Source: Tetraselmis striata (taxonomy: Eukaryota; Chlorophyta; Chlorodendrophyceae; Chlorodendrales; Chlorodendraceae). Taken from it: a stretch of DNA of 64,000 bases. A program made the translations under genes and the position numbers. Location: NCBI GenBank assembly GCA_006384855.1, contig VCJN01002614.1:1-64000 (forward strand), given 5' to 3'. The stretch's first letter is position 1. Each line of letters opens with the position of its first letter. Shown in pieces: positions 21,424 to 36,920 of the stretch. The notes below the pieces were generated by a model. The model saw only the letters and a list, made by a program, of their open reading frames with translations, did no database searches and was not told the origin of the DNA.

Positions 21424-22136
21424 TGTATGTAATTATCGAAGTTGCTGTGTGATTGTGCTCGTCCCAATTCCTGTCTGAAGGCACATTGCGACAGGTTACA
21501 CTACATGCGGTTCATGGTATCAACATTATGTAAAACAATAAAACTACAGGCTGTGTACGGTTGCTAAAAACCCATCTTTGACAAGTTGAATTCTCAAGGT
21601 TATTTGGAAGCATGAGTGCGCTCATCCGGAAGCATGAAAAATGTCGGGAGTACAGTCTGGAGTCACGCGCCGCTTTGAGCGTCTTTGCATGATCGCGTCA
21701 TGTCATGCTCCGAAACCAAAACACTCCCCGCCGCACGACGCATATGCCACTACCCAGCTACTAGCACCGCCGCACTCTGCCCGAGTCGACATCTGCTCCG
21801 AAACCAGAGAACTCGCACCCGCCGTGGAGCATTTCGAGCGCGTTACATTCCGCCTGCCCGGCGTCGCGTTGCGTCCTAGCGGTCGTTTGCGAGGCGTGCG
21901 CGCCAACAATAGCAGAAAACGAAGCCGGCAAGAGGAGCCTGGGAGATCTGCATGGTACACGCGCAGACGCGCGGCGTCGGTGCTGGCGTGTTCAGTGGCC
22001 TCGGAAGGGAAACATTGCGCTGCCCCGAAACCATTTAGAAGGCGACGCGGGACACGGCATACGCGAAGAGTTTATCCTGTTTGGGGTTTACAGTCGCCGC
22101 CGCCCCGACTCACCTGAAACACGCATTCCCATAGGG
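21424..22136. repeat. Direct repeat R1, copy 2
   Basis: Second copy of the R1 repeat, same orientation as 18945-19732, with scattered substitutions and small indels. It lacks the 56-bp insert and so serves as the pre-insertion reference. It ends about 30 bases before the left inverted end of the 12-kb element. Confidence 0.85.
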
Positions 22137-22163
22137 TATATTACAGAGGCTTGGCGTGGCAAT

Positions 22164-22193
22164 AACAGTAATGCAACCTATTTTGCCCCGAGG
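22164..22193 (+). repeat. Left terminal inverted repeat of the 12-kb element
   Basis: Reads AACAGTAAT, two variable bases, AACCTATTTTGC, then CCCCGAGG. The reverse complement of 34324-34353 gives AACAGTAAT, two variable bases, AACCTATTTTGC, then ACCGTGG. About 26 of 30 positions agree. The outermost AACAG could be chance. Confidence 0.7.
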
Positions 22194-22254
22194 CACGCGG
22201 TGCATTGTGGTTAGGTGTAAATTAGGGTTTGGGGGCAGCAGTGGGATTGAAAGC

Positions 22255-22490
22255 TAACATGAATGCCGGTTGGTTCATTTTGTGCCAAGTCGGGGAAACC
22301 AATTCCGTCCAAGCAGGGACAAATCAAAAGAGTGAAGGAAACGGGATGGTTACAAGTAGTTTGCGCCGTCGTGGGCTGAAACTCTGTCCAAACTGGGACA
22401 AAAATAAGGGCGGGGGGCGTGATGGCTACAAGTAGTTTGTGCCGTCCGGGGCTGAAACTCTGTCAAAGCCGGGACAAAACATATGAGCGG
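22255..22490. repeat. Subterminal repeats with GTCC/GGAC dyads, left end
   Basis: A unit of about 77 bases occurs twice in tandem (about 22346-22415 and 22422-22485), each with TACAAGTAGTTTG, GGGCTGAAACTCTGTC and ending GGGACAAAA. Three short dyads of the form TGTCC-spacer-GGGACAA lie at about 22305-22322, 22384-22403 and 22459-22479. Repeated dyads inside transposon ends are often transposase-binding sites; that role is inferred here. Confidence 0.65.
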
Positions 22491-22509
22491 CTAATTTTGC
22501 GGAATTGTA

Positions 22510-25500
22510 CTACATATCATCATCTTCGATCACATAATCCCCTCGGCGCTCTGCCGCCTCTTGCCTCCTCTTCTCCGCCGCTACACGCTCTTCCCGCTCC
22601 TCTAACTCGGTCATTGGAAGGGGTAGACCCGGCCACTTCTCGAAGTCACTTGGACGCAGTTGTTGAGTCTCGTCCCATGGCTTCTCTTTGAACCATGAGG
22701 TCATCCTGGACTTCATCCCAGCGATTTGCGTCTTCTGGTTGTCAATGAGGATAATCTTCAAGTTCCTGTGTGTGAACGAGTAGGTATGATCCATATGGTC
22801 CCACCACACGGAAAAGGCCGCAGCGACCTGGAAAAGGCGTGGCAAACCGCACAAGGCGTTTTTTTTTTTGGATCCCATTAAGACACTCACCCAGGTTGCA
22901 CCCCTCACGCACCGCGGTTGTCCCGGTTCCGGCTGTGACGTCGACGATTGTTGTCCCGTCTGTTGCCGCCATCTTAAGGTGCTTGGCGAAGAGAGCGATA
23001 GGCTTTTGGTACTTGTTCACCGTCTGTCTGTTCTCGTCCTTCAATTTCGAACTGTCTTTGAAGTGACCCAATATGATGGATGTAGAGAACCTGGAAAGGC
23101 ACAACCGGCTTAGCGAGTAAATAAATACAAGCCGGCTATTTTCCACGGATCAAATCTCACCTTCGGGGATCATCGAAACGGATGTTGTCCGCTATGATGC
23201 TTGGCGGGGGCTTCCTGACGTAGAGGTAGTACTCAGCGTCGTGACGCAGAGAGCTGCCCATCTTCATCCCGCAATCCTTGGCCCAAGTCAGGACGTGATA
23301 GATGAGGTCCTCAGCTTGTTTTTGAACGGCTGTGATTGCGGATCCAAGTTGCTGGTCCGAGAGGTGAATGAAGAAATGGCACCCATCGAGAGCAGTGTGG
23401 ACGTCAGAAGATCCAGTCAGGATATTCAACTGCCTGCGCGGGGGAAAAATCGGGAATGAGATAAATGAAAGCACAGTCATCTACGCACCGGGGTTGTGGG
23501 GTTGTCTTGCCTGGCGAAAGCAAACACGTCGTTGAAGTCGTCCGTACCCCACGCAGCATCCTTCGAGTCCCATGTGTGCGAACCAGCTCCGAAAAGCGCG
23601 TCGGCGATGAAGACTGTTGCCTTTCTGGCACGAACTGCCGACATGGCGTCCGCGACGAATTGTTTTGTTGCGGGAGCCTTGAAGTTCCCCTCCACAATGC
23701 AAGTCTTGCAAAGCTCCGTGTTCAACCACACCTTCTCATCCTTGTCGACCCCTTCTCCCTTGGGCATCACCGGAAGTTCCTCGGCCTGTGCGTATTAGAA
23801 GATTCGGGTTAATGGCTCACAACGAAAATTCAGAAGAGCATTTCTGGTTGCACAAGATCTTAGTTACCTTCATCGATATCCACAGCTCATTAGAAACATT
23901 CGGAGCGGAAACCGCGATAAGCTCCGGCGCACATGCCAGAAGAGCAAACTCTGTGAAGAAGGAGATGACCAAGTCCGGCATCTGATTCTTGATGCGATAC
24001 GCCTCACTCCTTATGGTGGTGTTGGTGGCCGCGATATGCTCTCGAACCGGTAGTGGTGTGAGACAATCGGCGGATTTCATGTCCCCCCATCTGGCAGGAG
24101 GGGTCAGCAAGACCATCAAAGGACCGGAGCGATGAGCACCTTTGAACAAATCCTGGAACTTTCTGGGGAAGCCTGTTGGGCCGAGGTCATCAACCTTGGC
24201 TCGGAACTTGGTGATGGCGTCAAGGCGAGCGGTCGCTTGCTCATCCGACACTTTGTCATCCACATCCATTTCGATGATGTGGTCCGAGAGATATTTCCCC
24301 CAGTTCCTGGCCGGTTCGTCGGGCGTCAGCAGTTGGAGTTCCTGTCCGTGTCCCTTTGCCGTGCCAATAGCATTCATGAGCTTGATGCTTGCTCGACGCA
24401 AGAGATCGCGAAACCTCCAGGTCTCAATCATCGCGAGCCACTCCGCGTTGGTGTGCGTGACAGCCATGGGGCCATCGTCGCCGGCATGCTTAATGTCATC
24501 CACCAGCTCGTAGAGGCTCGGGGTCACACTGTGCTCGCCTTGGATGAGCAGTCCAACCACCAGGTACATCTGGCCCACAGGGAGATCCGCGCTGTCGCTC
24601 TGCTTGGCAAGAGACGGCTCGTCTAGCCAGGGCGCATGGGGTCCAAAGCCAACATCCTGGGTCGAAAAACAAACTTCTCAAAAGTTTGTATTCCATGTGA
24701 TTAAGACACTGGGGTCGGTCACAACTTACCTCCATGAGTGCGACTCGGAAGTGAGCTCTGTCTTTGCCGAAGCCGTACTTCTTATTATCGAGGATTGCAT
24801 TGATAGGCTTCCGAATTGCTTCGTAAACCTTGCTCACTTCCTTCTGGGTGAGTTGCCTGCCGGAATTGAGGCGCTTGACTCTATCGAGTTCTTGCTCGTA
24901 GTACACAAACATGTCTCGGAGTTTGGTTCTGGCTTCGTCCCATCCTCGAACCCCGAGGTCCACATGCCGGTAGGCTTCAGAAATCTGCTCAATGGGGCTC
25001 AAAAACACTGCGCAAATCATTTGTCAGAATCTAGCAGCATTAACAACACGATAAATTTTCATCATGTACGCAGCTCACCGTTGTGGGCGCGAGCAGAGGT
25101 CAATCAAATTTGAGAACTCGCTGCTCTTCTCATCTTTGATGCCGATCTTCTCAAGTTCAACTTGAAGAACTTCAGACTTCTTGAACTCCTTCACTACCCT
25201 GATTTGCGGGAGTGCCCTAAAGCCGGGGCGATTTGCATCCTGTTCTGCATACCAGCTCTGGAAACATCTGCGAAGGTCTGCAGAAACAACTGCACCGATT
25301 TCAAAATTCCGAACGATTGTACCTCGATGACAAACCGTTTCGTCCCGCTGATGACAGACCGTTTCGTCCCGCTGATGACAAACCGTTTCGTCCCACTGAT
25401 GACATACCGTTTCGTCCCACTGATGACAAACCGTTTCGTCCCACTGATGACAGACCGTTTCGTCCCACTGATGACAGACCGTTTCGTCCCGCTGATGACA

Positions 25501-28500
25501 AACCGTTTCGTCCCGCTGATGACAGACCGTTTCGTCCCACTGATGACAAACCGTTTCGTCCCACTGATGACAAACCGTTTTGTCCCATTGATGACAGAAC
25601 GTTTCGTCCCACTGATGACAAACCGTTTTGTCCCATTGATGACAGAACGTTTCGTCCCACTGATGACAAACCGTTTCGTCCCGCTGATGACAAACCGTTT
25701 CGTCCCGCTGATGACAGACCGTTTCGTCCCACTGTGACATATGTTTAACCCGCTAACGAAGAACGACTTTCGTCACACTTTACGCCTATTTGCTGCCACG
25801 GTCAGCTTAATAATAATTTGGGAGAATGGGGCACTCACCAGGAGTTTGTGCATCGACGTGTCTCCCACGACGGTGTGACCCGCCTCGTTGAGCTTCATAG
25901 ACATGTAGCGGCAGACTTCCGGCGAGAGGCCGATGTACATCTTAGCCGACGTGAGGTGGATGCCTTTGTTGGCTTTGTAGATTTCCGGGTAGTTTTCTTT
26001 CACCATGCGCTTCGCCTCCCGTCTGTGGCTGCCGTCGATGTTGGCTTGACGCGCGCCGTAGGCCCTAAGAAAATCGATGATGACGTCGATCTCTGGCTTG
26101 TAGGAACTTGAATCCGCCAACCTCGGGTTCTCCCCGCCTTCGTGTGCTGCGACTAGCTCCTTGAAGTTGGCCATGGTCTGAGCGAGGGGCTCGTACTCAT
26201 CGGAGAAAAAATCTTGTTTAGGGACTACTGGAAAGGACACCGAGAAATTCTCGGCGGACAGGGAAGGATTCCTCTGAATAACAAATGCAAGAAATGGATG
26301 TCAGTAAGTTGCATTGTGTATTGATTACCGGATAGGTACAACAGGTCGCGATAGGCTTTTACCTTGTAGCTTTGCGCCACCATATTGCAGTCTTGCAGCT
26401 TTGGGGAACGGAATTCAAATTCCGGCGGCGGAGCGACGAACTTATCGGATATGAAGCTGAAAATGTGAGGCAGCCCCGTATCCTTGTCGACGACGAGGTT
26501 GACTCTGTCGGCGTATAGCGTGTTGATGTCGCCACCGTGAGATGTCTTCACCTCTGGATCAGCAATCTCGACTCTGAGGTGGCCGTAAGAGATCCAGTCG
26601 ACGGCACCGGTGTTGTGGAAGCCATTCAAGGCCGGCGGGACGGCCAACGTGTTGACGTATGGAAGCGCGTTCTTAAAATCCTTGTCAATGTTGGCCAAGT
26701 CATTGATGTAAATCTGACCAGACGCGAAACCTGTCAGCGCCTGAGCCAGCACATTGCGCTCGACCAAAGTCCATGCGTAGTAAGACTGGAACCGCGGCTG
26801 GAAGGAGAGTGGCGGTTGGATCGCGTGGAGTAGCAACCTCTCAAAGCTGACATCGATCCTGAACTCCTTGTGCACTGTCAAGCGATAAGGTTCAAGGGAG
26901 ATCTGCGGTAACAAGCATAAGAATATTAATACTTATTGAAACACGACATTGACACGAATTCAGACATCATGTAAGCTTTACTCACCTCGTAGTTTCCGGC
27001 CGAGTCCAGCTCGACGTCCTTGATCTTTCCGATACACGCGAGAAGTGGCCCCTCCGGATCATCGAAAAAGTCCTTGCCAGTCAGCAGGCTCGCCTTGTGC
27101 AATTCGATGTACAAATAGATCTCTACCTCAGCACTTGCGTTCTTGAACCAGTGGATAGTCCAGCTCCTTGAGGTAAAGTCGCTGTAGGAGTCATCTTCTT
27201 GGGACCCGTCCCTCTCGTCAAAGAAGTCGTCGTAAGAGGCGACCGTCATCAGCTTTGTCTTCCTCTCGGGTCCAGGAGTGCCGGTGATGTCGAGAGCTTG
27301 CTTACGCTTCTCTGCCGCCCGTTGCCTCTGTTCTTCCTCTGTGCCGAAGACCTCTTCATCCGTGCACATACTGAGGAATTCAGGAACCCTTCTCGGAGCC
27401 TCGGCAATAGGGGCTCGAGAACCAGAGGCTCCAGAACCAGACGCTTGCCCGGTAGTCGGCGCTGGAGTCTCGAGCTCGGCCTCTGGCTCCGGGTCAAGCC
27501 GAGTGGGCTCGGGCTCCGGCTCGGGCTCCGGCTCCATCTGAGTGGGCTCTGTTTCAGGCTCCGGCTCGGGCTCCGGCTCCGGCTCAGTGTGCTCTATTTC
27601 AGGCTCAGGCTCTGTTTCCGGTACTTGAGATGGGCCTTTAGACAAAGAAGAGCCTTGATTCGGGGAACCTGTAAAGAATGAGTAGAGAGTACTCAACACA
27701 CCTGCAGTGGGCGTCACGATTAACTACTGAACGGTATCGCCATACACCATCAAAGCCAAGCGTAATTTTTCTTACCTGGGGATCCCGATTTACCAGCTGC
27801 TTCCGACGCGGTTGCCTGCGCCAATTTACGACCTGTTGGAACGTCAGATAACTCATTGACGAGAAAGTAATCGAAGGGAGTGAGAAGGCAGGGATTGATA
27901 CTTTCAGTCACAATTACCTGGAGTCACAATCGTCTCTGAAACCTTTTCTTTTCCCTTGGATTCCTTTGAAGCTTGAGTCGCTACTGGCTCATGTGCGCGT
28001 CCTTTCGAACCTGTCAACACACATGATTTCAAACAATGTAAATATGACACAGTGCACTCACAAAGGCAGGGATTGATACTTTCAGTCACAATTACCTGGA
28101 GTCACAATCATCTCTGAAACCTTTTCTTTCCCCTTGGATTCCTTTGAAGCTTTAGTCGGTACTGGCTCATGTGCGCGTCCTTTCGAACCTGTCAACACAC
28201 ATGATTTCAACCAATGTCAATATGATACAGTGCACTCACAAAAATCATATGATTGGAGAGGCAAGGACCTGATTGATAGTAAGCTTGCATGAGTTTTTCG
28301 TAATCGATTAGCCTTCGCGCTGTCTGCATTTGAGCATCTGAGAGGACTTGGCCGCTCTTGATTCGGGCCGTCAAAAGAGCGGCGGCCGATCTTTCTCCTT
28401 GCGAGTGCGTGCCGTAAATCGTCACTCTACCTCCTAAAAGGCTCGGTTTCCAGGGGTTACCTGATGCCTCAGCGCCGGCTCTAGCTGCAAAAGCTGAGGC

Positions 28501-29647
28501 TGCACGGCTCTTCTTCGCAGCCGGCTGCTCGGGCACAGAAGATGACGCCTTGTGTTTTCTCCCGACTAGCGCTCCGAGCGCATCGAATTCTTTTGCTTTA
28601 TCGGGAGGTTTTGGTGTCCGCTTGGACCTTCGACCTATAAATATCATATCATGTCAGACCGTTTCGTCCCGCTGATGACAAACCGTTTCGTCCCACTAAT
28701 GACAAACCGTTTCGTCCCACTGATGACATACCGTTTCGTCCCACTGATGACAGAACGTTTCGTCCCGCTGATGACAGAACGTTTCGTCCCACTGACGACA
28801 GACCGTTTCGTCCCGTTGATGACAGACCGTTTCGTCCCACTGATGACAGACCGTTTCGTCCCACTGATGACAAACCGTTTCGTCCCACTGATGACATACC
28901 GTTTCGTCCCACTGATGACAAACCGTTTTGTCCCACTGATGACAAACCGTTTCGTCCCACTGATGACAAACCGTTTCGTCCCACTGATGACAAACCGTTT
29001 CGTCCCACTGATGACAAACCGTTTCGTCCCACTGATGACAAACCGTTTCGTCCCACTGATGACAGACCGTTTCGTCCCACTGATGACAAAACTATTTTCA
29101 ATACATTATGTACTGCGGTTTAATAATGTAATGTCTTCAAGTACTGCGCTTCACACTAATATTAAACCACTCCTTACGGCGGAGTACAGGCAGAGGTTCC
29201 CCCTGGCCGCTCTTCACCCCCACCCCCTCCCACCACCAATTAGCATCCTTACTGCTTGCAACAGCTGCCTCGACGGGACGTAATACTACCATGCAGGACC
29301 CTGATGCCGCTCGTCTCGTTTGTGTTTATATTCCCACTCGTCTGCCTACACCTCGAGCGGTCCTAGATTACACCGCTTCTACAGGGAACCCTAACCGAAC
29401 TCGCTAGATCTGGCCGCATCACGCGTCGAGCAGGCAGGCGGCTACTGTACGCTGCCACTCGTCTGCCTACACCTCGAGTGGTCCTAGATTACACCGCTTC
29501 TACAGTGAACCCTAACCGAACTCGCTAGATCTGGCCGTATCACGCGTCGAGCAGGCAGGCAGCTACTGTACGCGCGCGCAACTCACCTGGGGTGGCGTCG
29601 TCCTTGTCTTCCTTGTCCTTGGCAGGCTCGTTCTTCTTCGGCGCCAT
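22510..29647 (-). CDS. Element gene A: large protein with C-terminal beta-class DNA amino-methyltransferase-like domain
   Basis: Predicted exons: 29647-29587, 28634-28269, 28188-28096, 28010-27918, 27832-27776, 27668-26986, 26902-26363, 26273-25839, 25257-25079, 24997-24730, 24656-23868, 23785-23489, 23429-23161, 23090-22913, 22827-22510. All phases agree, about 1,541 aa. Order: Lys/Glu-rich start MAPKKNEPAK; a duplicated 31-aa exon (GSKGRAHEP...); a Glu-Pro repeat near residues 235-275; about 900 residues I do not recognise; then, from about 1190, a methyltransferase-like domain. Its motifs run FIADALFG (motif IV place, near 1249), HVLTWAKDCGMKMGSSLRHD and EYYLYVRK, YQKPIALFAKHL, and IVDVTAGTGTTAVAAAF (SAM-binding loop, near 1425-1440). 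That order is the beta class (N6-adenine/N4-cytosine). The catalytic DPPY is DALF, so activity is doubtful. Some donor choices, notably 28269, are weak. Confidence 0.7.
25319..25738. repeat. 24-bp tandem array 1 (in a gene A intron)
   Basis: About 17 copies of a 24-bp unit with core GTTTCGTCCCACTGATGAC followed by AAACC, AGACC or ATACC. It fills most of the intron between gene A exons ending 25839 and starting 25257. Because 24 is a multiple of three and the unit lacks stops in most frames, it creates long repetitive reading frames on both strands that are not genes. Confidence 0.95.
27885..28240 (-). repeat. 178-bp tandem duplication of a gene A exon and its intron
   Basis: Bases 27885-28062 and 28063-28240 are near-identical with an offset of exactly 178. 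Each copy holds a 93-base exon (28010-27918 and 28188-28096) with its own acceptor, donor and flanking intron. Both exons are phase 1 at each side and encode GSKGRAHEPV..KASKESKG-like Lys/Glu-rich peptides, so either or both can be used without a frame change. Confidence 0.9.
28652..29092. repeat. 24-bp tandem array 2 (gene A intron 1)
   Basis: About 18 copies of the same 24-bp unit as array 1, same genomic orientation, within the first intron of gene A (29586-28635). Variation is mainly CCACTG versus CCGCTG and the base after GACA. Unit edges are sharp on the side next to exon 2. Confidence 0.95.
29335..29576. repeat. 121-bp tandem direct repeat (gene A intron 1)
   Basis: Two near-identical units, 29335-29455 and 29456-29576, each beginning CACTCGTCTGCCTACACCTC and containing GAACCCTAACCGAACTCGCT and ATCACGCGTCGAGCAGGCAG. 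They end ten bases before the first exon of gene A and differ by only a few substitutions, so the duplication is recent. Confidence 0.9.
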
Positions 29648-30190
29648 TCTGGCGGTAGGTAGGTTGACGCGGTAGATGAGCGTGTTTCTTGGTGGGAAGC
29701 GGTGAGGGAGAGGTGGAAATGACGTGGTTTCCGTCTGCCGCCGCTCTGACCCCTGCTGGACCAACGGCGCGCGTGCGCACACTATAGTGTACCTCGTCGT
29801 CGTCATCAGGTTCATGTATTTTGCACCGCGACGAATATACAGGGCTAACTACTGCGACTATATATTACTATTACTGGAAGATAAAATATTCCCTACTCGA
29901 GAGTCATAACGGTACGAGAGTACAGTGGCGTGGCAATAATATTCCTTCATGGGATGATATATTCCTTGGATTGGATTCGGGTGTACTTACTAGTATAGAA
30001 CTATTTCCGACATACGAAAGAAGCACGAAATAACACGGTATTTGAGTCATCAATTATTTTGACCCGTACCTGGATATTATGCACCCCGGTCAACGGCCCG
30101 TCCGAGAACGGTCATCGGCCGTCACTCTTCCTCACCACAGATCACAGTCCTTCACCCCCCCCCCCCCCCCACCCACTCGCCCCGCGCTGC
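29648..30190. promoter_or_regulatory. Divergent promoter region of element genes A and B
   Basis: The 543 bases between the two start codons must hold both promoters and 5' leaders. It is AT-rich in the middle (about 29840-30010), with several TATA-like stretches such as ATATATTACTATTACTGG. A C run is at about 30157-30170. No specific factor site can be named. Confidence 0.5.
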
Positions 30191-33100
30191 ATGGCGGCGG
30201 TCGAAAGCATGGCCTCTTCTCCAGGATCCGGCGCGTCGGACACTACAGTTACATTACCGCTGTGTTCGTGCCGCAGTGGGTACTCGTGTGATTGCGACGC
30301 GCGTGCGAGTGATCGTAAGGAGCCTGAGAAAAGGAAGTACACGTGGGGCAAGGGCTGCGATGAGGTCGCCGAAAGCGGTAATGGCAAGGTCTCGTCTCTG
30401 ATCAGCAAGCGCACCTCTCGCGATTGTATCCGCCTCATGCTCGCCAAGGAGGCTAGCGAGCAGTCGCCATGCTGTTCGCGCAAGTGCGTGCACAAGCTAT
30501 ACACACAGTGCGGAGAGGCCCTCGTTGATGCCGTGTTGGACCGTGCGTTGACCGTATACTCTGGCAATCAGAACCGCTCCTTTGACCGGCTCGCTCAGGT
30601 TCTCAGGGGTGGCTACGAGTCGGCATCCGACAAGTTCGATTACATGTTCGATCACGGTGGCTACTTGCGATCTTTCGATCATCGCGGCCCCATCTACACG
30701 TGTGGGCGTGCGTGGGAGGTCTTGCATCAGGTCTCGAAACACAGACGTCTCGTGATCCAGCGGTCGGTGGTGGATAACGAACCCACGTACATCAGGCAGC
30801 GCAAGCAATACGAGAGCAGACAGACCGGACCGAGGGAGCATGTGCGCATGTTTCTCGAGCACTTCTTCTCGGATGACCTCGGTCACGTCGAGATCATGCC
30901 TTTTCATGACGGAAACAGCGAGACCTTCAAGAAGCACCTACCTCCCTGGATGACCAAGATTTGCGTCTACTACTACTACAAGTCGTGGGCCGAGGACGAC
31001 AACGCCATTCTCCGTGGTGAGGCCCATTTTGTCCCACTGATGACATACCGTTTCGTCCCGCTGATGACAGACCGTTTCGTCCCACTGATGACAAACCGTT
31101 TCGTCCCACTGATGACAAACCGTTTCGTCCCACTGATGACAAACCGTTTCGTCCCACTGATGACAAACCGTTTCGTCCCACTGATGACAAACCGTTTCGT
31201 CCCACTGATGACAAACCGTTTCGTCCCACTGATGACATACCGTTTTCGTCCCGCTGATGACAAACCGTTTCGTCCCACTGATGACAAACCGTTTCGTCCC
31301 GCTGATGACAGACCGTTTTGTCCCGCTGATGACGAACCGTTTCGTCCCACTGATGACAAACCGTTTTCGTCCCGCTGATGACAAACCGTTTTGTCCCACT
31401 GATGACAGAACGTTTCGTCCCGCTATCGCCAGAACGTTTAGTCCCACCGACGCCGGACCGATTTCGTCCCACTGATGACAGAACGTTTCGCACCGCTCAT
31501 GGCATACCGTTTCGTCCCACCGACCACAAAAGTATTTGTCCCACATAATTAGCCGATATCGTCCCACTGCAGAGAGAACGTCTTGTCCCACTGCTGAGAG
31601 ACGGTTTTGTCCCACTACTGACATACCGTTTCGTCACACTGATGACAGATTGTTTCGCCATGCTGATTACAGAATTATTCACCCACTACCGATATAATTA
31701 TTTCGACCCACTTCAGACCGAACTTTTCTGTCTCGCATTATGAGACCTTATTTGTATACCGACATATCACGCCCCTGCCCCTTTGTAGATTTGGCTACCG
31801 AGAGCGAAGTGAAGCTCGCATCGTTCGACACTTTCCGCCGGACTTGGAAGGAAGACTTCCCGGATGTCACCACGCCGAAGGTGAAGCGATTCAGCCACTG
31901 TCCCATATGCGCGGCGGGCAAAGCACTCAGAGACCAAGCTCGCGAGATTTGCACAAAGGACATGACGCCAGAGGAACGTCAAGTGCACCGTCAACATCAG
32001 CAGCTGGTGAGGCGTCAGGTCAGAGCTGAGCAGAAGGTACACCTCGAGAGAGTGCGCCAGGAACGAAGGGATCTGAACAACGCCGTCTTCCAGTCGCGCC
32101 TTGGCCATGGAAACTTCTTCTTCTTCGAAATTGATAGCATGGACTCCGCGAAGACCCTGCTGCCTCACTGGGTTCGCATCCCCAAGACTGTGAAGCCCGA
32201 CATGCTCCTCAAGTACCACCTCACCTGTGTGAAGTACGACGGATACCGCCCGGACGACATCTACTACTACACCAACACCATCCCCCACGATTCGTCCACG
32301 ACGTGCACTCTGATATGGATCACGATCATGAAGGTGAGCTCGTTAGCCTCCCGATAGGTTCGCCGTGGTTGTCCGGTAGCCATGGACTGATGAAAGCTTG
32401 TCTGCGATGCAGGAAATTCAACACCGTGGTAGAAAGATTCCGTACATCAGAATCCAGATGGACAACACCGTCAGGGAGAACAAGAATAGGAACGTGGCGG
32501 CCCTCTGCAATTGGCTTGTGTCTATCGGCATCTGCGACGTCATTCATTTGGTCTTCTTGCCTGTCGGGCACACTCACGAACGGGTTGACCAGATCTTCAG
32601 CCGCATCAGTCTTGCGCTATCTCGCAGCTCCGCCTACACAATCGAGGCCTTTCTTGACTTGGTGGCGAAGGCATTCTCGCCCACTCCGGAGATTGCTGAG
32701 CTCTCATTCTCCCTCGACTTCTCTGAGTGGTTAAGGCCCCATTTCCAAGACCACATTCAGGACATCAGTAAGCCGCACAAATTCGAGTTCACCCGTGACG
32801 ACGCCGCCGCGTCTGGCGGCTCGTTGCGCACCGCCTTGTGGTCCAACACACCGCTTTCTGAGCCCGTGCAGATCTTGAAGAGCGCGCCAACTGGGACGCC
32901 CGAGATTCGTGCGGGCCGGCCCCTTTTGTACGCTCTCTGCGACAAAAAGAAGCCCGACGCGGTGAAGGTCCAGAGGTACTTGGATGATTTCAAGAAGGTC
33001 AGGTCGTACATCACGGACCTGGCGGTCCAGTGGCACTTCTCCCCAGTCGAGCGCGAGAGCTGGAAGAATCTGCTCGACGACTTGGATGAGATGCAAACTG

Positions 33101-34060
33101 CTCCTTCGGCAGCTTTCTCCGGGTTCTGGCCGCAACGGAAAGAGGAAGTTGACGACTTCTTGCGCGAGCACGGGCAGACCGCGCCTGCTGAGGCACGTCA
33201 CACGATGGCTACCAACGCAGACCTCAACAATGCCGAAGCCGCTCGCGTGGAAGCCGAGGTTCGTGCTCAAGTGCTTCAAGATGACAGCGCCTTCCGGGGA
33301 GTTCACGCCGGCGCCAAGGAGAGGCTTCATGACAACACATCGCCCAGCGATGCAAAGGGCTCGAACCTCGTTGTCATCGACGTCTCCGATGTGAGTCCCA
33401 TTGTTTGTCATTTTTGTCCTTTACGGGACAAAACAATTTGGTTCTTCTACCTTGCTTGTTATTTTGTCCCAGCTGGGACAAAAATGGCGTGGCGTCTCGC
33501 TCGGGACTAACATAGCTCGCGGTCTTGGTCATCGTTAGGTGCATGAGGAAGACAAGTGTCCTGAAACTCTTGGTGATTGGGAGTCGAGATTCGTCATCGG
33601 GCTTGTGAAGTCGCGCGAGACTACCGAAGACACGTTGACCGTGGCCGTATACGAGCCCTTCCATGCCGATGCAAAGGGCAAACCCCTCATGCCCCTATGG
33701 TTGTACGCGCAGACAAAAGGAGGGAAGAAGCCAGTTGACACAAGCTGGGAGAAGTGCCTGACGCTTCCTTGGAAGCTTGTTGAAGCCGTCCCCCTATCGT
33801 ACGCGAAGGCCATCCACGACGCGTCGGGAAGTCGAGAGGTGTTCAACGAGGACGGCACCATGGTCAGAAAGAAGTGGTACGGTAAAAGCGTCCAAGTCGT
33901 GAAGACATATGCGCAAACTGGGTGGCAAATCAGCCAGCCACGAAACAACTGCGTCCACGTCATGTCAACCACCCCAGCGCAACGCAAACCCGGCGGAGTC
34001 GTCAAGTTTAACGCAGCCACGAAGAAGGACTTGCTTGAGTTGGGGATGCTCAACGAATAA
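30191..34060 (+). CDS. Element gene B: putative transposase with RNase H-like core (DUF7869/KDZ-like)
   Basis: Predicted exons 30191-31016, 31789-32333, 32413-33390 and 33539-34060 join in phases 1, 0 and 0, giving about 956 aa. The N-terminal part is Cys-rich (LCSCRSGYSCDCDAR, CCSRKCVHKL), suggesting metal binding. Later come FDTFRRTWKEDFPD, a CPIC knuckle, and FFFEIDSMDSAKTLLPHW, then YIRIQMDNTVRENKNR, then FLPVGHTHERVDQIFSRI. This spaced Asp / Asp-Asn-x-x-x-Glu-Asn-Lys / His-Thr-His-x-x-Val-Asp set is what I recall from transposase-like proteins of protists and animals (DUF7869), with an RNase H-type fold. The C-terminal exon (WESRFVIGLVKSRETTED, ARM-like none) is of unknown role. Start Met chosen at 30191 over an upstream Met because it follows the C run and begins the Ala/Ser-rich leader. 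The family name is tentative. Confidence 0.75.
31026..31737. repeat. 24-bp tandem array 3 (gene B intron 1)
   Basis: About 20 good copies of the 24-bp unit (31026-31490) followed by about nine increasingly degenerate copies to 31737. It lies inside gene B intron 1 (31017-31788). Orientation on the genome is the same as arrays 1 and 2, so relative to transcription it is sense here and antisense in gene A. Two copies carry an extra T (CGTTTTCGTCC), which shifts the phantom reading frame. Confidence 0.95.
33412..33483. repeat. GTCCC/GGGAC palindromes in gene B intron 3
   Basis: A perfect 22-bp palindrome at 33462-33483 (core TTTGTCCCAGCTGGGACAAA) and an imperfect one at 33412-33434 (TTTGTCC, spacer, GGGACAAAA). 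A similar dyad, CTTGTCCCATTTTGGACAAAA-like, lies at 34136-34157 near the right end of the element. Confidence 0.85.
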
Positions 34061-34323
34061 ACTATCAGCAACGTCTTGTGGCTAGCTAGCCGCTGGATGT
34101 AATAATCATAATAAATATTGATTTCATTGCCTCATCTTGTCCCATTTTGGACAAAATGCTCCAAAACCAACATTGGATATGCGTCGCGGCTGGCCTTCAT
34201 GCTGTTGAATGCTGCACTGCACCCAAGGTCTACAAACCCAAGCTACATCACCAGTGAGTCTTAAGTACTGATAGTAAACCCGGGAACTAGGGTATAAACA
34301 AACCCTACGGTGCAAAATGAATT

Positions 34324-34353
34324 CCACGGTGCAAAATAGGTTAAATTACTGTT
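34324..34353 (-). repeat. Right terminal inverted repeat of the 12-kb element
   Basis: Inverted match of the left end at 22164-22193. Just inside, CACGGTGCAAAAT is repeated (about 34308-34320 and 34325-34337), so the end also has a short internal direct repeat. The tyrosine-recombinase element begins immediately outside. Confidence 0.7.
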
Positions 34354-36920
34354 GAAGGAGAAGCACACGCAAGTCGTCGGGTCCCCGTCGGCCAGCGCGG
34401 CCTTTCTCGCGGTACACATGCAGGGTAATGTTGTAATCGTCGACATGCACATCCCGCACTCGGCAGGACACGAGGGCTCGGAAGTCGTGTTGGTACTCTG
34501 TCCCTGACACCTGTACTAAGTCCCCTGGCAAAGAACATATGAAGTTGACAACCGAGGCCACGAGGGCTCGGAAGTCGTGTTGGTACTTTGTGGTGGGACG
34601 AAGAGACACAACCAACTCGGCCTTTTTGACGAAGCTGTAAGCTACATCAACAGGCAGAGGATCTTGCAAAGGGGCGGCTTCCAAACTAACGTCGCTGCCG
34701 CAGCATCAGCCCACGCCTAGCTGCAGGAAGGTGTAGGCGGTCCTTGGCGATTGGGTCGAGGCTGTGCAGTTCGAAGAACGTGTTGATTGCATACATTTAT
34801 ATATGGTTGCAACGATTTAGCTCCAATGTGCCCTCGCTCACCAATCCAGGCAACGTACCGGACGGGAGTAGCAGTGGTCGCCTCCGGCGGGCTGATGTTC
34901 TCGGAGTCGTGGCAGAACTCCGCGAACTGAGAGAGTCTGCCGGCGTAGCTCTTGAGTGTCTGAGCGGTGAGGGAGCTGGAGAGCAGGTCGAGCGTCCGCT
35001 GTCCTAGTTCGTCTGAGCCGAAAGCATCATGCAGTCGTGATCGCAGTGAAGCAGCCAAGCAAGGGGGCGACAGCTTCGGGCTCGTCAATTACGTAAGTGC
35101 GTCGTTTTACCGACAAAGTACCATGAGGGCGACTACTGTTTGCAAAGTACTCGGCAGCAACGGTTAGGTTCCCGGCGGTTGGCCAGTAGTTGCTGGACGG
35201 GTTTGCAGTAGCACCAGTACGGGGATGCGGGGCTAGGTTCAGATAGGAGGGCCGCCCCGCGCGCCCTTCGCGCTCGTAGCGCATGTCACGCGCGTACCGT
35301 ACACGCGTGAAGCTTGGTCGTTGCGAACCAGTTGTAACAAGCAGTGTAACAACCGACGGACTCTGTGATGGAATGGTACGGGAGGCGGTACCAGTGATGT
35401 ACCGCCTCACTGGTACCGCCTCACTGGTACCGCCCGAGGCGTACCAGTGATGGAATGGTACGGGAGGCGGTTGGTTGAGCCGCCATGTGCAGGTGTGCGG
35501 ATGGCTGAGCCGCACTCGGCTGTAGCTGTGAAAAGCGCCGCACCGAGGAAGGTCTAAATGAAGTCTGTAAGGTGGGGGTGGCCAGGTCCTGACACAGGGC
35601 GCTCATCCCGCCGTTGAGCTGCAATGGTGCGCTTTGCGGCGGTCGCCGAAAGGTGGCCTCGCAAAGCTCCAGCAGCTACGACGAAAGGCGCTTCACACCG
35701 TCGCTCGTGCTCACCTTCGCGGCCACGCCCGCGTCCACCGCCACGTCGTCCTCGTCCACGTCCGCGACCTGCAGCAGCTGCTGCCGCCACCCGAGCAGTA
35801 GCGGTTGCCTTGGCGCTGCTGGCCACAGTCGCCTCGAAGACGCGACGCTCGCTCGTAGTCCCTCATGAGGTCCCCAAAAGTCGCGGAACCCGGATGCTCG
35901 GAAGCAGGCTGAAAGTGCTGAGCTCGCAGCACGTCCAAAACACCTTGGTCACCGTGCGTGCACACGATTGACCTCATTAAGCCTCCGTAGGAAGGCCAAA
36001 CGAAAGCGAAACGCCTTGTCGATGGCTTCGGCATGGTTCCGAGCTCTCGCGAGGTAGGGGGTGAAGTCCTGATTTGCAGCAGGGACGTAGGGCAGCATCT
36101 CGTCGAGAGCTACGAAAAGTGCGGCCATGTGGGCGCCGAAACACGACATCCATAGATACTCCTCCTGGGCCGGCAGACGCCGGTCATCATGCTTGAGGTA
36201 CTCGTTCGTTTGGTCGGTGCTCAAGCGGAAGAGTCTAGGCACTCGGCTGACCGGTCGAACGGCCTCGTAACCAGACTGCTCTCTGCAGTAGGTCTGGCAC
36301 CGCGAGGTAGTCATCCTCGTCACTCACGGATTTTGCTCCGACACGGCCGCTCTGGGCTAGCTCTAGCAAGTCGGGGCGCTCTGCGGCTCCCCCGCTGCCT
36401 GTCGGCTGTCCCGCGATGCGCTGCCCGGAACCGGAACCATGTGCTCCTTCTCCATCAACAACGCGCTCACGAGCCGTCAATTGGGCCATCGCTGCAGCAA
36501 GCTCTCACAGTAATGTAGACTGGGCCTTCACGTCTGCGTGTAGCGACTCGAGCGTCGGCTCAACAACGGACTCTTCTCCATCTGGCATGGTAACGCACGG
36601 ACGTACGAATGAGAATATCACACACGGGTGGTGAGCCGGGTGTGGTCTTGAACAACCTGGGTGACCTTGCTCGAAACAGGTTACGAGAGAGTTTTAAACA
36701 TCGCTGCGTGGAACGCAGCGAAAACTGGAAGATGGCAGGCTCAACTGTTATGGCTTCTTTTATGTCTACTCATGCTGCCCCCAAAAAGGGCGCAACGACA
36801 GGTGCCTAGTTCCCGTACCACTGAGCAGCACTTGTAGCCGAAAAGCGGTTAGGTCAAGGGAGGAAACCCCATAAACTAGTTTAGATCATTTCAAAGTTAA
36901 GTATGGTTTTGCCAACAAGT
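34354..36920 (-). mobile_element. Tyrosine-recombinase element, copy 1 (fossil)
   Basis: Decayed mobile element transcribed on the minus strand. Parts in order from its 5' side: a leader with a repeat shared by copy 2 (36714-36920), an N-terminal region with an alpha-helical domain (about 36600-35900), an Arg/Gly-rich segment (about 35800-35700), and a tyrosine-recombinase-like region (about 35090-34354) with the DNA-binding N-terminal domain, e.g. SLTAQTLKSYAGRLSQFAEF and RYVAWIGERGHIGAKSLQPY. No reverse transcriptase is seen, so a Crypton-like family is the likeliest, with a DIRS relative possible. The reading frame is interrupted several times and the recombinase end is cut off at the border with the 12-kb element. 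Confidence 0.6.

What the first reader, a model, noticed from the sequence alone, without database searches (positions are those of the whole stretch)
22164..34353. A 12.2-kb element pairing a transposase-like gene with a giant methyltransferase-like gene
Seen: inverted ends; two divergent multi-exon genes, 15 and 4 predicted exons, whose phases agree at every junction and which have no internal stop. Gene B has a FEIDSMD / QMDNTVRENKN / VGHTHERVDQ series. Gene A ends in a methyltransferase fold. Known: some eukaryotic transposons (for example KDZ elements in fungi) carry DNA-modifying enzymes. Inference: this is a DNA transposon that encodes its own chromatin or DNA-modification factor, and the copy may still be functional. 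I do not know a described family with this pair.
Basis: partly seen in the sequence, partly recalled or inferred. Interest (0 to 1): 0.88.

Follow-up and report, generated by a model that had tools for sequence, protein, structure and literature searches.

The report
Algal jumping gene with DNA-methylase partner
A green alga's genome holds well over a hundred copies of a 12-kilobase jumping gene that carries, beside its likely mover enzyme, a DNA-methylase-like protein and dozens of copies of a short DNA word, which suggests that it marks or shields its own DNA.

Summary
Window 22164-34353 is one copy of a DNA-transposon family in a 224-Mb assembly that is evidently the green alga Tetraselmis striata. 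The end sequence recurs at 416 exact sites; 7 of 13 copies with both ends carry 4-bp target duplications (not the window copy), and uninterrupted targets were seen for 3 of 6 joined sites. Gene B (956 aa) is a DUF7869 protein with invariant acidic motifs and a possible BAH-like tail: the likely transposase. Gene A (1477 aa modelled, 15 exons) ends in a beta-class N6/N4 DNA-methyltransferase fold whose catalytic DPPY reads DALF here, in 18 relatives and in a diverged copy. A and B lie head-to-head (87 of 145 A probes; same strand 3, convergent 0; lists truncated). It is not KDZ by the tests made.

New here: three introns carry 24-bp arrays of a 9-bp word, TTTYGTCCC (about 60 per element, 2 in the rest of the window), whose core outlasts the rest of the unit. 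Arabidopsis VANDAL transposons look alike: VANC anti-silencing proteins bind their intronic arrays. I propose that gene A is a self-targeting modifier. Transposon-borne methyltransferases are in print (Ectocarpus); this combination I did not find. Binding, activity and expression are untested.

The parts
22164..22193 (+). left terminal inverted repeat (AACAGTAATGCAACCTATTTTGC...)
   Evidence: same end in 13 of 14 copies; genome count
34324..34353 (-). right terminal inverted repeat (AACAGTAATTTAACCTATTTTGC... read on minus strand)
   Evidence: same end in 14 of 14 copies
22513..29647 (-). gene A, 15 modelled exons, 1477 aa: 29647-29587, 28634-28461, 28188-28096, 28010-27918, 27832-27776, 27668-26986, 26902-26363, 26273-25839, 25257-25079, 24997-24730, 24656-23868, 23785-23489, 23429-23161, 23090-22913, 22827-22513
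   Evidence: JGI relatives agree at several junctions, but 0 of 18 contain exon 9 or the start of exon 13 and 4 of 18 contain exon 14's motif I
22513..23785 (-). gene A exons 12-15: methyltransferase fold (motif IV as DALF in exon 12; QKP stretch and DVTAGTGTTA in exon 14 and its junction to 15)
   Evidence: PF01555; hhalign against YhdJ and six phage methylases
30191..34060 (+). gene B, 4 exons, 956 aa: 30191-31016, 31789-32333, 32413-33391, 33540-34060; DUF7869 residues 410-588
33361..33780 (+). possible BAH-like tail of gene B (end of exon 3 plus exon 4; limits approximate)
   Evidence: profile A4 against PDB: SHL 5znp E 8.8e-4, EBS 0.12; Pfam scan found no BAH
25326..25739 (+). 24-bp tandem array, gene A intron 8 (17 cores TTTYGTCCC in this copy)
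28651..29090 (+). 24-bp tandem array, gene A intron 1 (18 cores)
31027..31647 (+). 24-bp tandem array, gene B intron 1 (20 cores)
33412..33483 (.). two palindromes TTTTGTCC(C)..GGGACAAAA in gene B intron 3
   Evidence: kept in diverged relative C2717
22306..22481 (.). three imperfect subterminal copies of the same palindrome, left side
   Evidence: family D5
34135..34158 (.). imperfect subterminal palindrome TTGTCCCATTTTGGACAAAA, right side

Best explanation
An autonomous cut-and-paste-type DNA transposon family. Gene B is its transposase: a DUF7869 protein that makes 4-bp target duplications and whose possible BAH-like tail may read chromatin. Gene A is an accessory protein that recognises the element's own intronic arrays of TTTYGTCCC and acts on the element's DNA or chromatin through a methyltransferase fold, most likely to keep the element expressed or to mark it as self, much as VANC proteins do for VANDAL transposons. 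Shown: element, ends, duplications, gene pair, families by sequence, arrays and conservation of their core. Inferred: that B is catalytic, that A (rather than B) binds the arrays, that A modifies DNA, and that the outcome is anti-silencing.
For: Fixed ends, 4-bp duplications in 7 of 13 copies, uninterrupted targets for 3 of 6 joined sites. Divergent A and B: 87 of 145 A probes, same strand 3, convergent 0; JGI tags within 4 of each other for 18 of 49 A representatives, 0.54 expected. B: the second D of xxDxxD, the D of QxDN, and H-T-H and DQ of GHTHxxxDQ are identical in the 16 of 18 aligned rows that have the region; three of those rows are near-identical Tetraselmis proteins. A: hhalign probability 95, E 3.7e-8 to beta-class methylases, with DALF on DPPY; against a diverged relative A stays under constraint, dN/dS 0.09-0.44 over 5 exons. 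Arrays: 52-69 forward plus 3-4 reverse cores in 13 of 14 copies, 34+4 in the deleted copy C2384, in the same introns with changing core number. In 20 degenerate units the core matches 88% strictly, 91% with the Y allowed, against 59% at the positions outside core and TGATGA; 0 of 100000 random 9-position sets reach the 91%. VANDAL parallel: same-orientation arrays of a 9-base motif in VANC and VANB introns (PMC5735166 passages).
Against: The two prolines of motif IV are missing in all relatives seen, so A may not methylate. A evolves loosely (pN/pS 0.56 over 14 copies, exons 12 and 15 near 1). 3 of 14 copies have stops in A and none in B, but C2384 lacks B exon 1, and 10 copies were chosen through the best-B list, which favours intact B. 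Only 4 of 18 JGI models join the exon that carries motif I.
Confidence: 0.45

Rival explanations
1. The arrays and palindromes are binding sites or enhancers for the transposase (gene B), and gene A is an accessory with another role, for example marking the new copy after transposition.
For: The same word occurs as palindromes within about 320 bp of both ends and in B's last intron, and two palindromes survive in C2717, next to B. Many transposases bind subterminal repeats (recalled).
Against: 55 of the 56 forward cores of the window copy lie in internal introns 3-9.5 kb from the left end, which is unusual for transposase sites (recalled).
Confidence: 0.3
2. Gene A is a pseudo-methyltransferase: the fold is kept for DNA binding or base flipping but does not methylate. 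(This overlaps with the best explanation: A could still bind the arrays.)
For: DPPY reads DALF, invariant in 18 JGI proteins and present in C2717; exons 12 and 15 show pN/pS near 1 among recent copies.
Against: The D and an aromatic residue of motif IV are kept, motif I is kept, and exon 14 is strongly constrained, dN/dS 0.09 over 59 codons.
Confidence: 0.4
3. Gene A is captured cargo without a function for the element, drifting with it.
For: A diverges more than B among copies (pS 0.041 against 0.017), though copies were chosen for good B.
Against: dN/dS well under 1 against the diverged relative and co-occurrence with B in both close and diverged copies.
Confidence: 0.07
4. It is a KDZ (Kyakuja-Dileera-Zisupton) element.
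For: Giant KDZ elements with extra genes exist in brown algae (PMC12477816); an acidic motif series is present, as in DDE transposases generally.
Against: No KDZ domain hit in this genome (no control rang) or in 18 homologues; 4-bp, not 8-bp, duplications.
Confidence: 0.04

Closest known systems
VANDAL transposons with VANC anti-silencing proteins (Arabidopsis, MuDR)
   Same: Same-orientation tandem arrays of a 9-base word in introns of the element's own genes, array size varying between copies, an accessory protein with variable regions beside the other genes (PMC5735166 passages; PMC10398659 abstract)
   Different: Transposase is DUF7869, not MuDR; gene A has a methyltransferase fold, for which VANC is not known (recalled); binding and anti-silencing untested here
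Sola1-1_Ec32 of Ectocarpus with a ParB plus N4/N6 methyltransferase gene
   Same: Large algal DNA transposon, methyltransferase gene on the strand opposite to the transposase; authors propose binding and marking of own DNA (PMC12477816, section 5)
   Different: Sola-1 transposase, 21.5 kb, 1104 aa with ParB domain; no ParB found in gene A; arrays not mentioned in the section read
TET/JBP-carrying fungal transposons (KDZ, hAT, IS3EU, Harbinger, EnSpm, Plavaka)
   Same: Transposon-borne DNA-modification enzyme (PMC12730594 passages)
   Different: Acts on the methyl group of 5mC instead of a methyltransferase fold; other transposases and duplication lengths
DUF7869 proteins (PF25273)
   Same: Gene B is a member by score; 18 of 18 rows of the homologue alignment match the family
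   Different: No paper in the held library names DUF7869; I found no described transposon superfamily for it in the searches named

Membership tests
DNA transposon (cut-and-paste type) | fixed inverted ends in many copies | tested here: met
DNA transposon (cut-and-paste type) | target duplication of constant length and uninterrupted targets | tested here: met
   4 bp in 7 of 13 copies, not in the window copy; uninterrupted targets for 3 of 6 joined sites, none listed for a fourth, two not resolved
DUF7869 (PF25273) | score over Pfam cut-off | tested here: met
   149.5 bits against 26
DDE/D transposases (RNase H fold) | RNase H fold with acidic triad | tested here: inconclusive
   acidic positions identical in the 16 of 18 rows that have them; fold not testable, structure prediction off
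KDZ | KDZ domain PF18758 | tested here: not met
   0 hits in the genome (no control genome rang either) and none among 18 homologues
KDZ (Zisupton) | 8-bp target duplication | tested here: not met
   4 bp; 8 bp quoted from PMC12730594
N6_N4_Mtase (PF01555) | score over Pfam cut-off | tested here: met
   28 and 31.9 bits against 26.7 for my model; JGI model P0076 25.4 bits, just below; 4 of 18 JGI models match at E<=1
N6_N4_Mtase (active enzyme) | catalytic (D/N/S)PP(Y/F/W) motif IV (recalled definition) | tested here: not met
   DALF aligned to DPPY, invariant in 18
ParB-methyltransferase transposon accessory proteins | ParB domain | tested here: not met
   PF02195 hits 4 places of the genome at E<=1, none a gene A copy; the three of them that I read look bacterial
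VANDAL/VANC-type anti-silencing system (works like, not member) | tandem arrays of a short word in own introns | tested here: met
VANDAL/VANC-type anti-silencing system (works like, not member) | accessory protein binds the arrays and removes silencing | not testable with these tools
   needs binding and methylation data
BAH domain | score over Pfam cut-off | tested here: not met
   no BAH hit for 6 tail pieces; profile-to-PDB hit to SHL at 8.8e-4

The most novel reading that the evidence does not exclude
A second, independently evolved transposon self-recognition system of the VANDAL type: the element has seeded three of its own introns with about 60 copies of the binding word of its own methyltransferase-fold protein, so that modification (or a non-catalytic flip of the base) is confined to the element. 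The transposase tail would read the resulting chromatin.
Probability: 0.3. Interest if true: 0.87.

Novelty: new variant of a known kind. Interest (0 to 1): 0.68.

Why it matters
How transposons escape silencing without harming the host is a long-standing question with few worked systems. If gene A reads the arrays, this gives an independent case in a lineage far from Arabidopsis, with a DNA-modifying fold in place of VANC, and well over a hundred related copies with naturally varying array sizes for testing dose effects. It also gives PF25273, a domain of unknown function, a mobile context with ends and target duplications, which supports a transposase role for other DUF7869 proteins, here met in a sea cucumber and in metagenomes.

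Tried and rejected
KDZ membership. ParB domain in gene A, which I suspected from a GSHRREA stretch and the Ectocarpus precedent: not found. Phage or viral origin of gene A: its 305-aa methyltransferase piece has no match in 50,697 phage records at E<=1, and alignment A2 finds no relative in viral contigs; DUF7869 relatives in viral contigs: none for three single-protein queries. Relatives of gene A outside Tetraselmis: 18 of 18 and 49 of 49 protein hits were Tetraselmis (both searches need shared exact words, so remote relatives would be missed). Diversifying selection on gene A: exons 12 and 15 have pN/pS near 1 (and the 57-bp exon 5 is at 2.4) among recent copies, but exon 12 is at 0.44 against the diverged copy, so not claimed. 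Solved structures by sequence for the methyltransferase: no methyltransferase among the hits. Papers: DUF7869 0 papers. Searches on KDZ plus methyltransferase, ParB, 6mA-transposon, Bostrychia, N6_N4_Mtase-algae and transposon-encoded methyltransferase and on Tetraselmis striata plus genome or transposable element: no paper on this element among the listings seen; passages of four further papers did not mention it. Iyer 2011, the Bostrychia paper and a 2016 Iyer review were not held. The pairing test is limited: only best candidates are scored, so the 58 of 145 A probes without a listed B (12 of them, by my count, within 8.6 kb of a contig start on the side where B would lie) do not show that B is absent. 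True deletion derivatives exist (C70 and C200 at 7.3 kb; C2384 at 9.8 kb without B exon 1; C2717).
Full report
Source. The window is contig C2110:1-64000 of a 224,097,584-base, 2903-contig assembly. Gene B matches proteins of JGI Tetstr1 (TSEL tags), one at 98% over 99% of its length, so the organism is evidently Tetraselmis striata, Chlorophyta, Chlorodendrophyceae.

Element. A 754-bp right-end probe returned 40 copies, the number scored of 446 candidates, all printed as 100% identical. The end core occurs 416 times, 0 for the reversed pattern. Among the first 100 listed ends, 19 properly oriented pairs bound 12 elements of 12.0-12.8 kb, 2 of 11.1-11.6, 2 of 7.3 and 3 of 18.6-28 kb. I compared 14 copies: the window, 10 chosen from the best-B pairs with near-standard spacing, and C2384, C1441 and C226 from the right-end list. 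13 left and 14 right ends agree to the base. 7 of 13 copies have a 4-bp target duplication (ACAT, ATAT, GTAC, GTTC, ATGT, TAAC, TGAA); 6 do not, the window copy included (caat/gaag). With one copy of the duplication removed, joined flanks of C154 match uninterrupted sequence at 98-99% in all 40 places listed; those of C1721 at 96-97% and C1376 at 93-94% (junction check). No such match was listed for C1955. C2683 and C1547 were crowded out and not repeated.

The window copy itself is odd. Its left flank is single-copy apart from partial repeats about 2 kb upstream on the same contig, while its right flank belongs to a repeat with 78-83% identical copies (40 scored of 1814 candidates). With no target duplication, this copy may be a product of recombination between copies, an insertion at a repeat edge with later change, or an assembly chimera. 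I cannot tell which.

Genes. Gene B: 4 exons, 956 aa, DUF7869 at 1.1e-43. In an alignment of 18 proteins including distant relatives (sea cucumber, metagenomes) the second D of xxDxxD, the D of QxDN, and H-T-H and DQ of GHTHxxxDQ are the same in the 16 rows that have the region; the first D of xxDxxD is the same by reading the alignment (one search's line labelled 'D of EID' reads one column off). That is what a D-D-D/E transposase would show; the fold itself could not be modelled. The C-terminal part resembles BAH domains: a profile of 8 tails finds SHORT LIFE (5znp) at 8.8e-4 and EBS at 0.12-0.17 in the PDB, the whole-protein profile the same proteins at 0.0075-0.034. Pfam finds no BAH, so this is a lead. 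Gene A: 15 exons, 1477 aa. JGI models agree at the end of exon 8, the start of 11, the end of 12 and the start of 15, and 4 of 18 share the TAGTGTTA-(V/I)AAAF junction of exons 14 and 15; but 0 of 18 contain exon 9 or the first part of exon 13, and the others skip exon 14 or end before it. The exon chain is therefore a model. Exons 12-15 fold as a beta-class DNA methyltransferase: PF01555 at 2.6e-6 for the whole protein and 1.7e-7 for the piece, hhalign probability 95 and E 3.7e-8 to E. coli YhdJ plus six phage methylases. That alignment puts IADALFGAG on FADPPYNIG: the catalytic motif reads DALF, unchanged in the 18 JGI relatives and in the diverged copy C2717.

Pairing. With 145 A probes and 156 B places, 87 A have a divergent B within 20 kb (median gap 8.0 kb, 64 of 87 at 7.4-9 kb), 3 a same-strand B, 0 a convergent B. 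With only the first B list, 73 of 122 B are paired. The lists hold best candidates only (A 145 of 445, B 122 of 782, DUF7869 150 of 548). In JGI's own annotation 18 of 49 A representatives have a B tag within 4, 0.54 expected. A diverged relative, C2717, has A pieces (52-92% aa) and B (75-89% aa) in the same layout, with the middle lost next to an array remnant.

Selection. Over 14 copies pN/pS is 0.14 for B and 0.56 for A, with A's exons 12 and 15 near 1; A has stops in 3 of 14, B in none, though C2384 lacks B exon 1. Ten of the copies were chosen through the best-B list, so B's low divergence is partly selected for; frameshifts were not tested. Against C2717, A's exons give dN/dS 0.40 (exon 11), 0.44 (12), 0.31 (13), 0.32 (10) and 0.09 (14); B gives 0.49, 0.30 and 0.39 (exons 3, 2, 4) at lower dS (0.15-0.24 against 0.25-0.73). 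The aligned stretches of C2717 hold stops in A exons 10 and 13 and in B exons 2 and 4, so it is decaying. So A is constrained but looser than B among recent copies, and the two halves seem to have different ages, which fits exchange between copies.

Arrays. Three introns, A intron 1, A intron 8 and B intron 1, hold 24-bp head-to-tail arrays (18, 17 and 26 units by TRF). Each consensus unit contains TTTCGTCCC. The word TTTYGTCCC occurs 60 times in the element and 2 times in the other 51.8 kb. In 13 of 14 copies there are 52-69 forward and 3-4 reverse cores, in C2384 34 and 4; where the arrays are whole they hold 4-20 (A intron 8), 16-34 (A intron 1) and 19-23 (B intron 1) cores. An 18-mer of the unit occurs 7357 times in the genome, 0 in the reversed control; the hits listed fall on three contigs, in clusters that I could place beside A or B hits by eye. 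In 20 degenerate units (10 from the window's third array tail, 10 from C2717) the core matches in 88% of cells strictly and 91% with C or T allowed at the Y, TGATGA in 75% and the other positions in 59%; 0 of 100,000 random sets of 9 positions reach the 91%. Allowing the Y helps the core a little; units were picked by similarity to the whole consensus. The same word forms palindromes in B intron 3, kept in C2717, and imperfect ones near both ends.

Reading. The anatomy is that of VANDAL transposons: an accessory protein with variable regions, and same-orientation arrays of a short word in the element's own introns, which VANC proteins bind to undo silencing (PMC5735166 passages; PMC10398659 abstract). 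Here the accessory has a methyltransferase fold. My best reading is that gene A binds the arrays and modifies or shields the element; the main rivals are that the transposase binds them and that A no longer methylates. Neither binding nor chemistry is shown.

Known and new. A transposon gene with ParB and N4/N6 methyltransferase on the strand opposite to the transposase is described in Ectocarpus, with mention of green and red algal relatives and the suggestion that such proteins bind and mark their own transposon (PMC12477816, section 5 read; reference list part 2 of 5). So the general idea is in print. What I did not find in the searches named under Tried and rejected is a DUF7869 transposon with ends and duplications, its methyltransferase partner without a recognised ParB and with DALF, or the intronic arrays tied to it.

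Noticed in passing
window 22164-34353 with flanks 21764-22163 and 34354-34753: The window copy has no 4-bp duplication; left flank single-copy but for partial repeats on the same contig, right flank a repeat with 78-83% copies: recombinant or chimeric copy possible.
   Followed up: partly
window 27885-28242 and 29334-29573: A 178-bp tandem duplication doubles one exon of gene A (exons 3 and 4; exon 4 is missing from the alignment in C1547 and C2384); a 121-bp duplication lies in A intron 1.
   Followed up: partly
L019 (C2683 left flank): This copy sits 4 bp from another, inverted, related left end (80.8% over 208 alignment columns), as if elements insert next to their own kind.
   Followed up: no
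L041, L042, L043: Three ParB hits of the assembly lie in bacterial-looking uninterrupted genes, so the alga's assembly seems to carry bacterial contigs.
   Followed up: partly
P0048 (TSEL_005106): One JGI gene model fuses DUF7869 and N6_N4_Mtase in one protein; possibly an annotation artefact of a rearranged copy.
   Followed up: no
literature, PMC12115072: A red seaweed (Asparagopsis taxiformis) is said to have 66 N6_N4_Mtase genes against 4-6 in three other red algae, in a genome with 33% DNA transposons (passages): a lead for similar elements.
   Followed up: no
14 copies; C2717: Gene A halves look older than gene B halves in the same elements (pS 0.041 against 0.017; copies partly chosen for good B), which suggests exchange of halves between copies.
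   Followed up: partly
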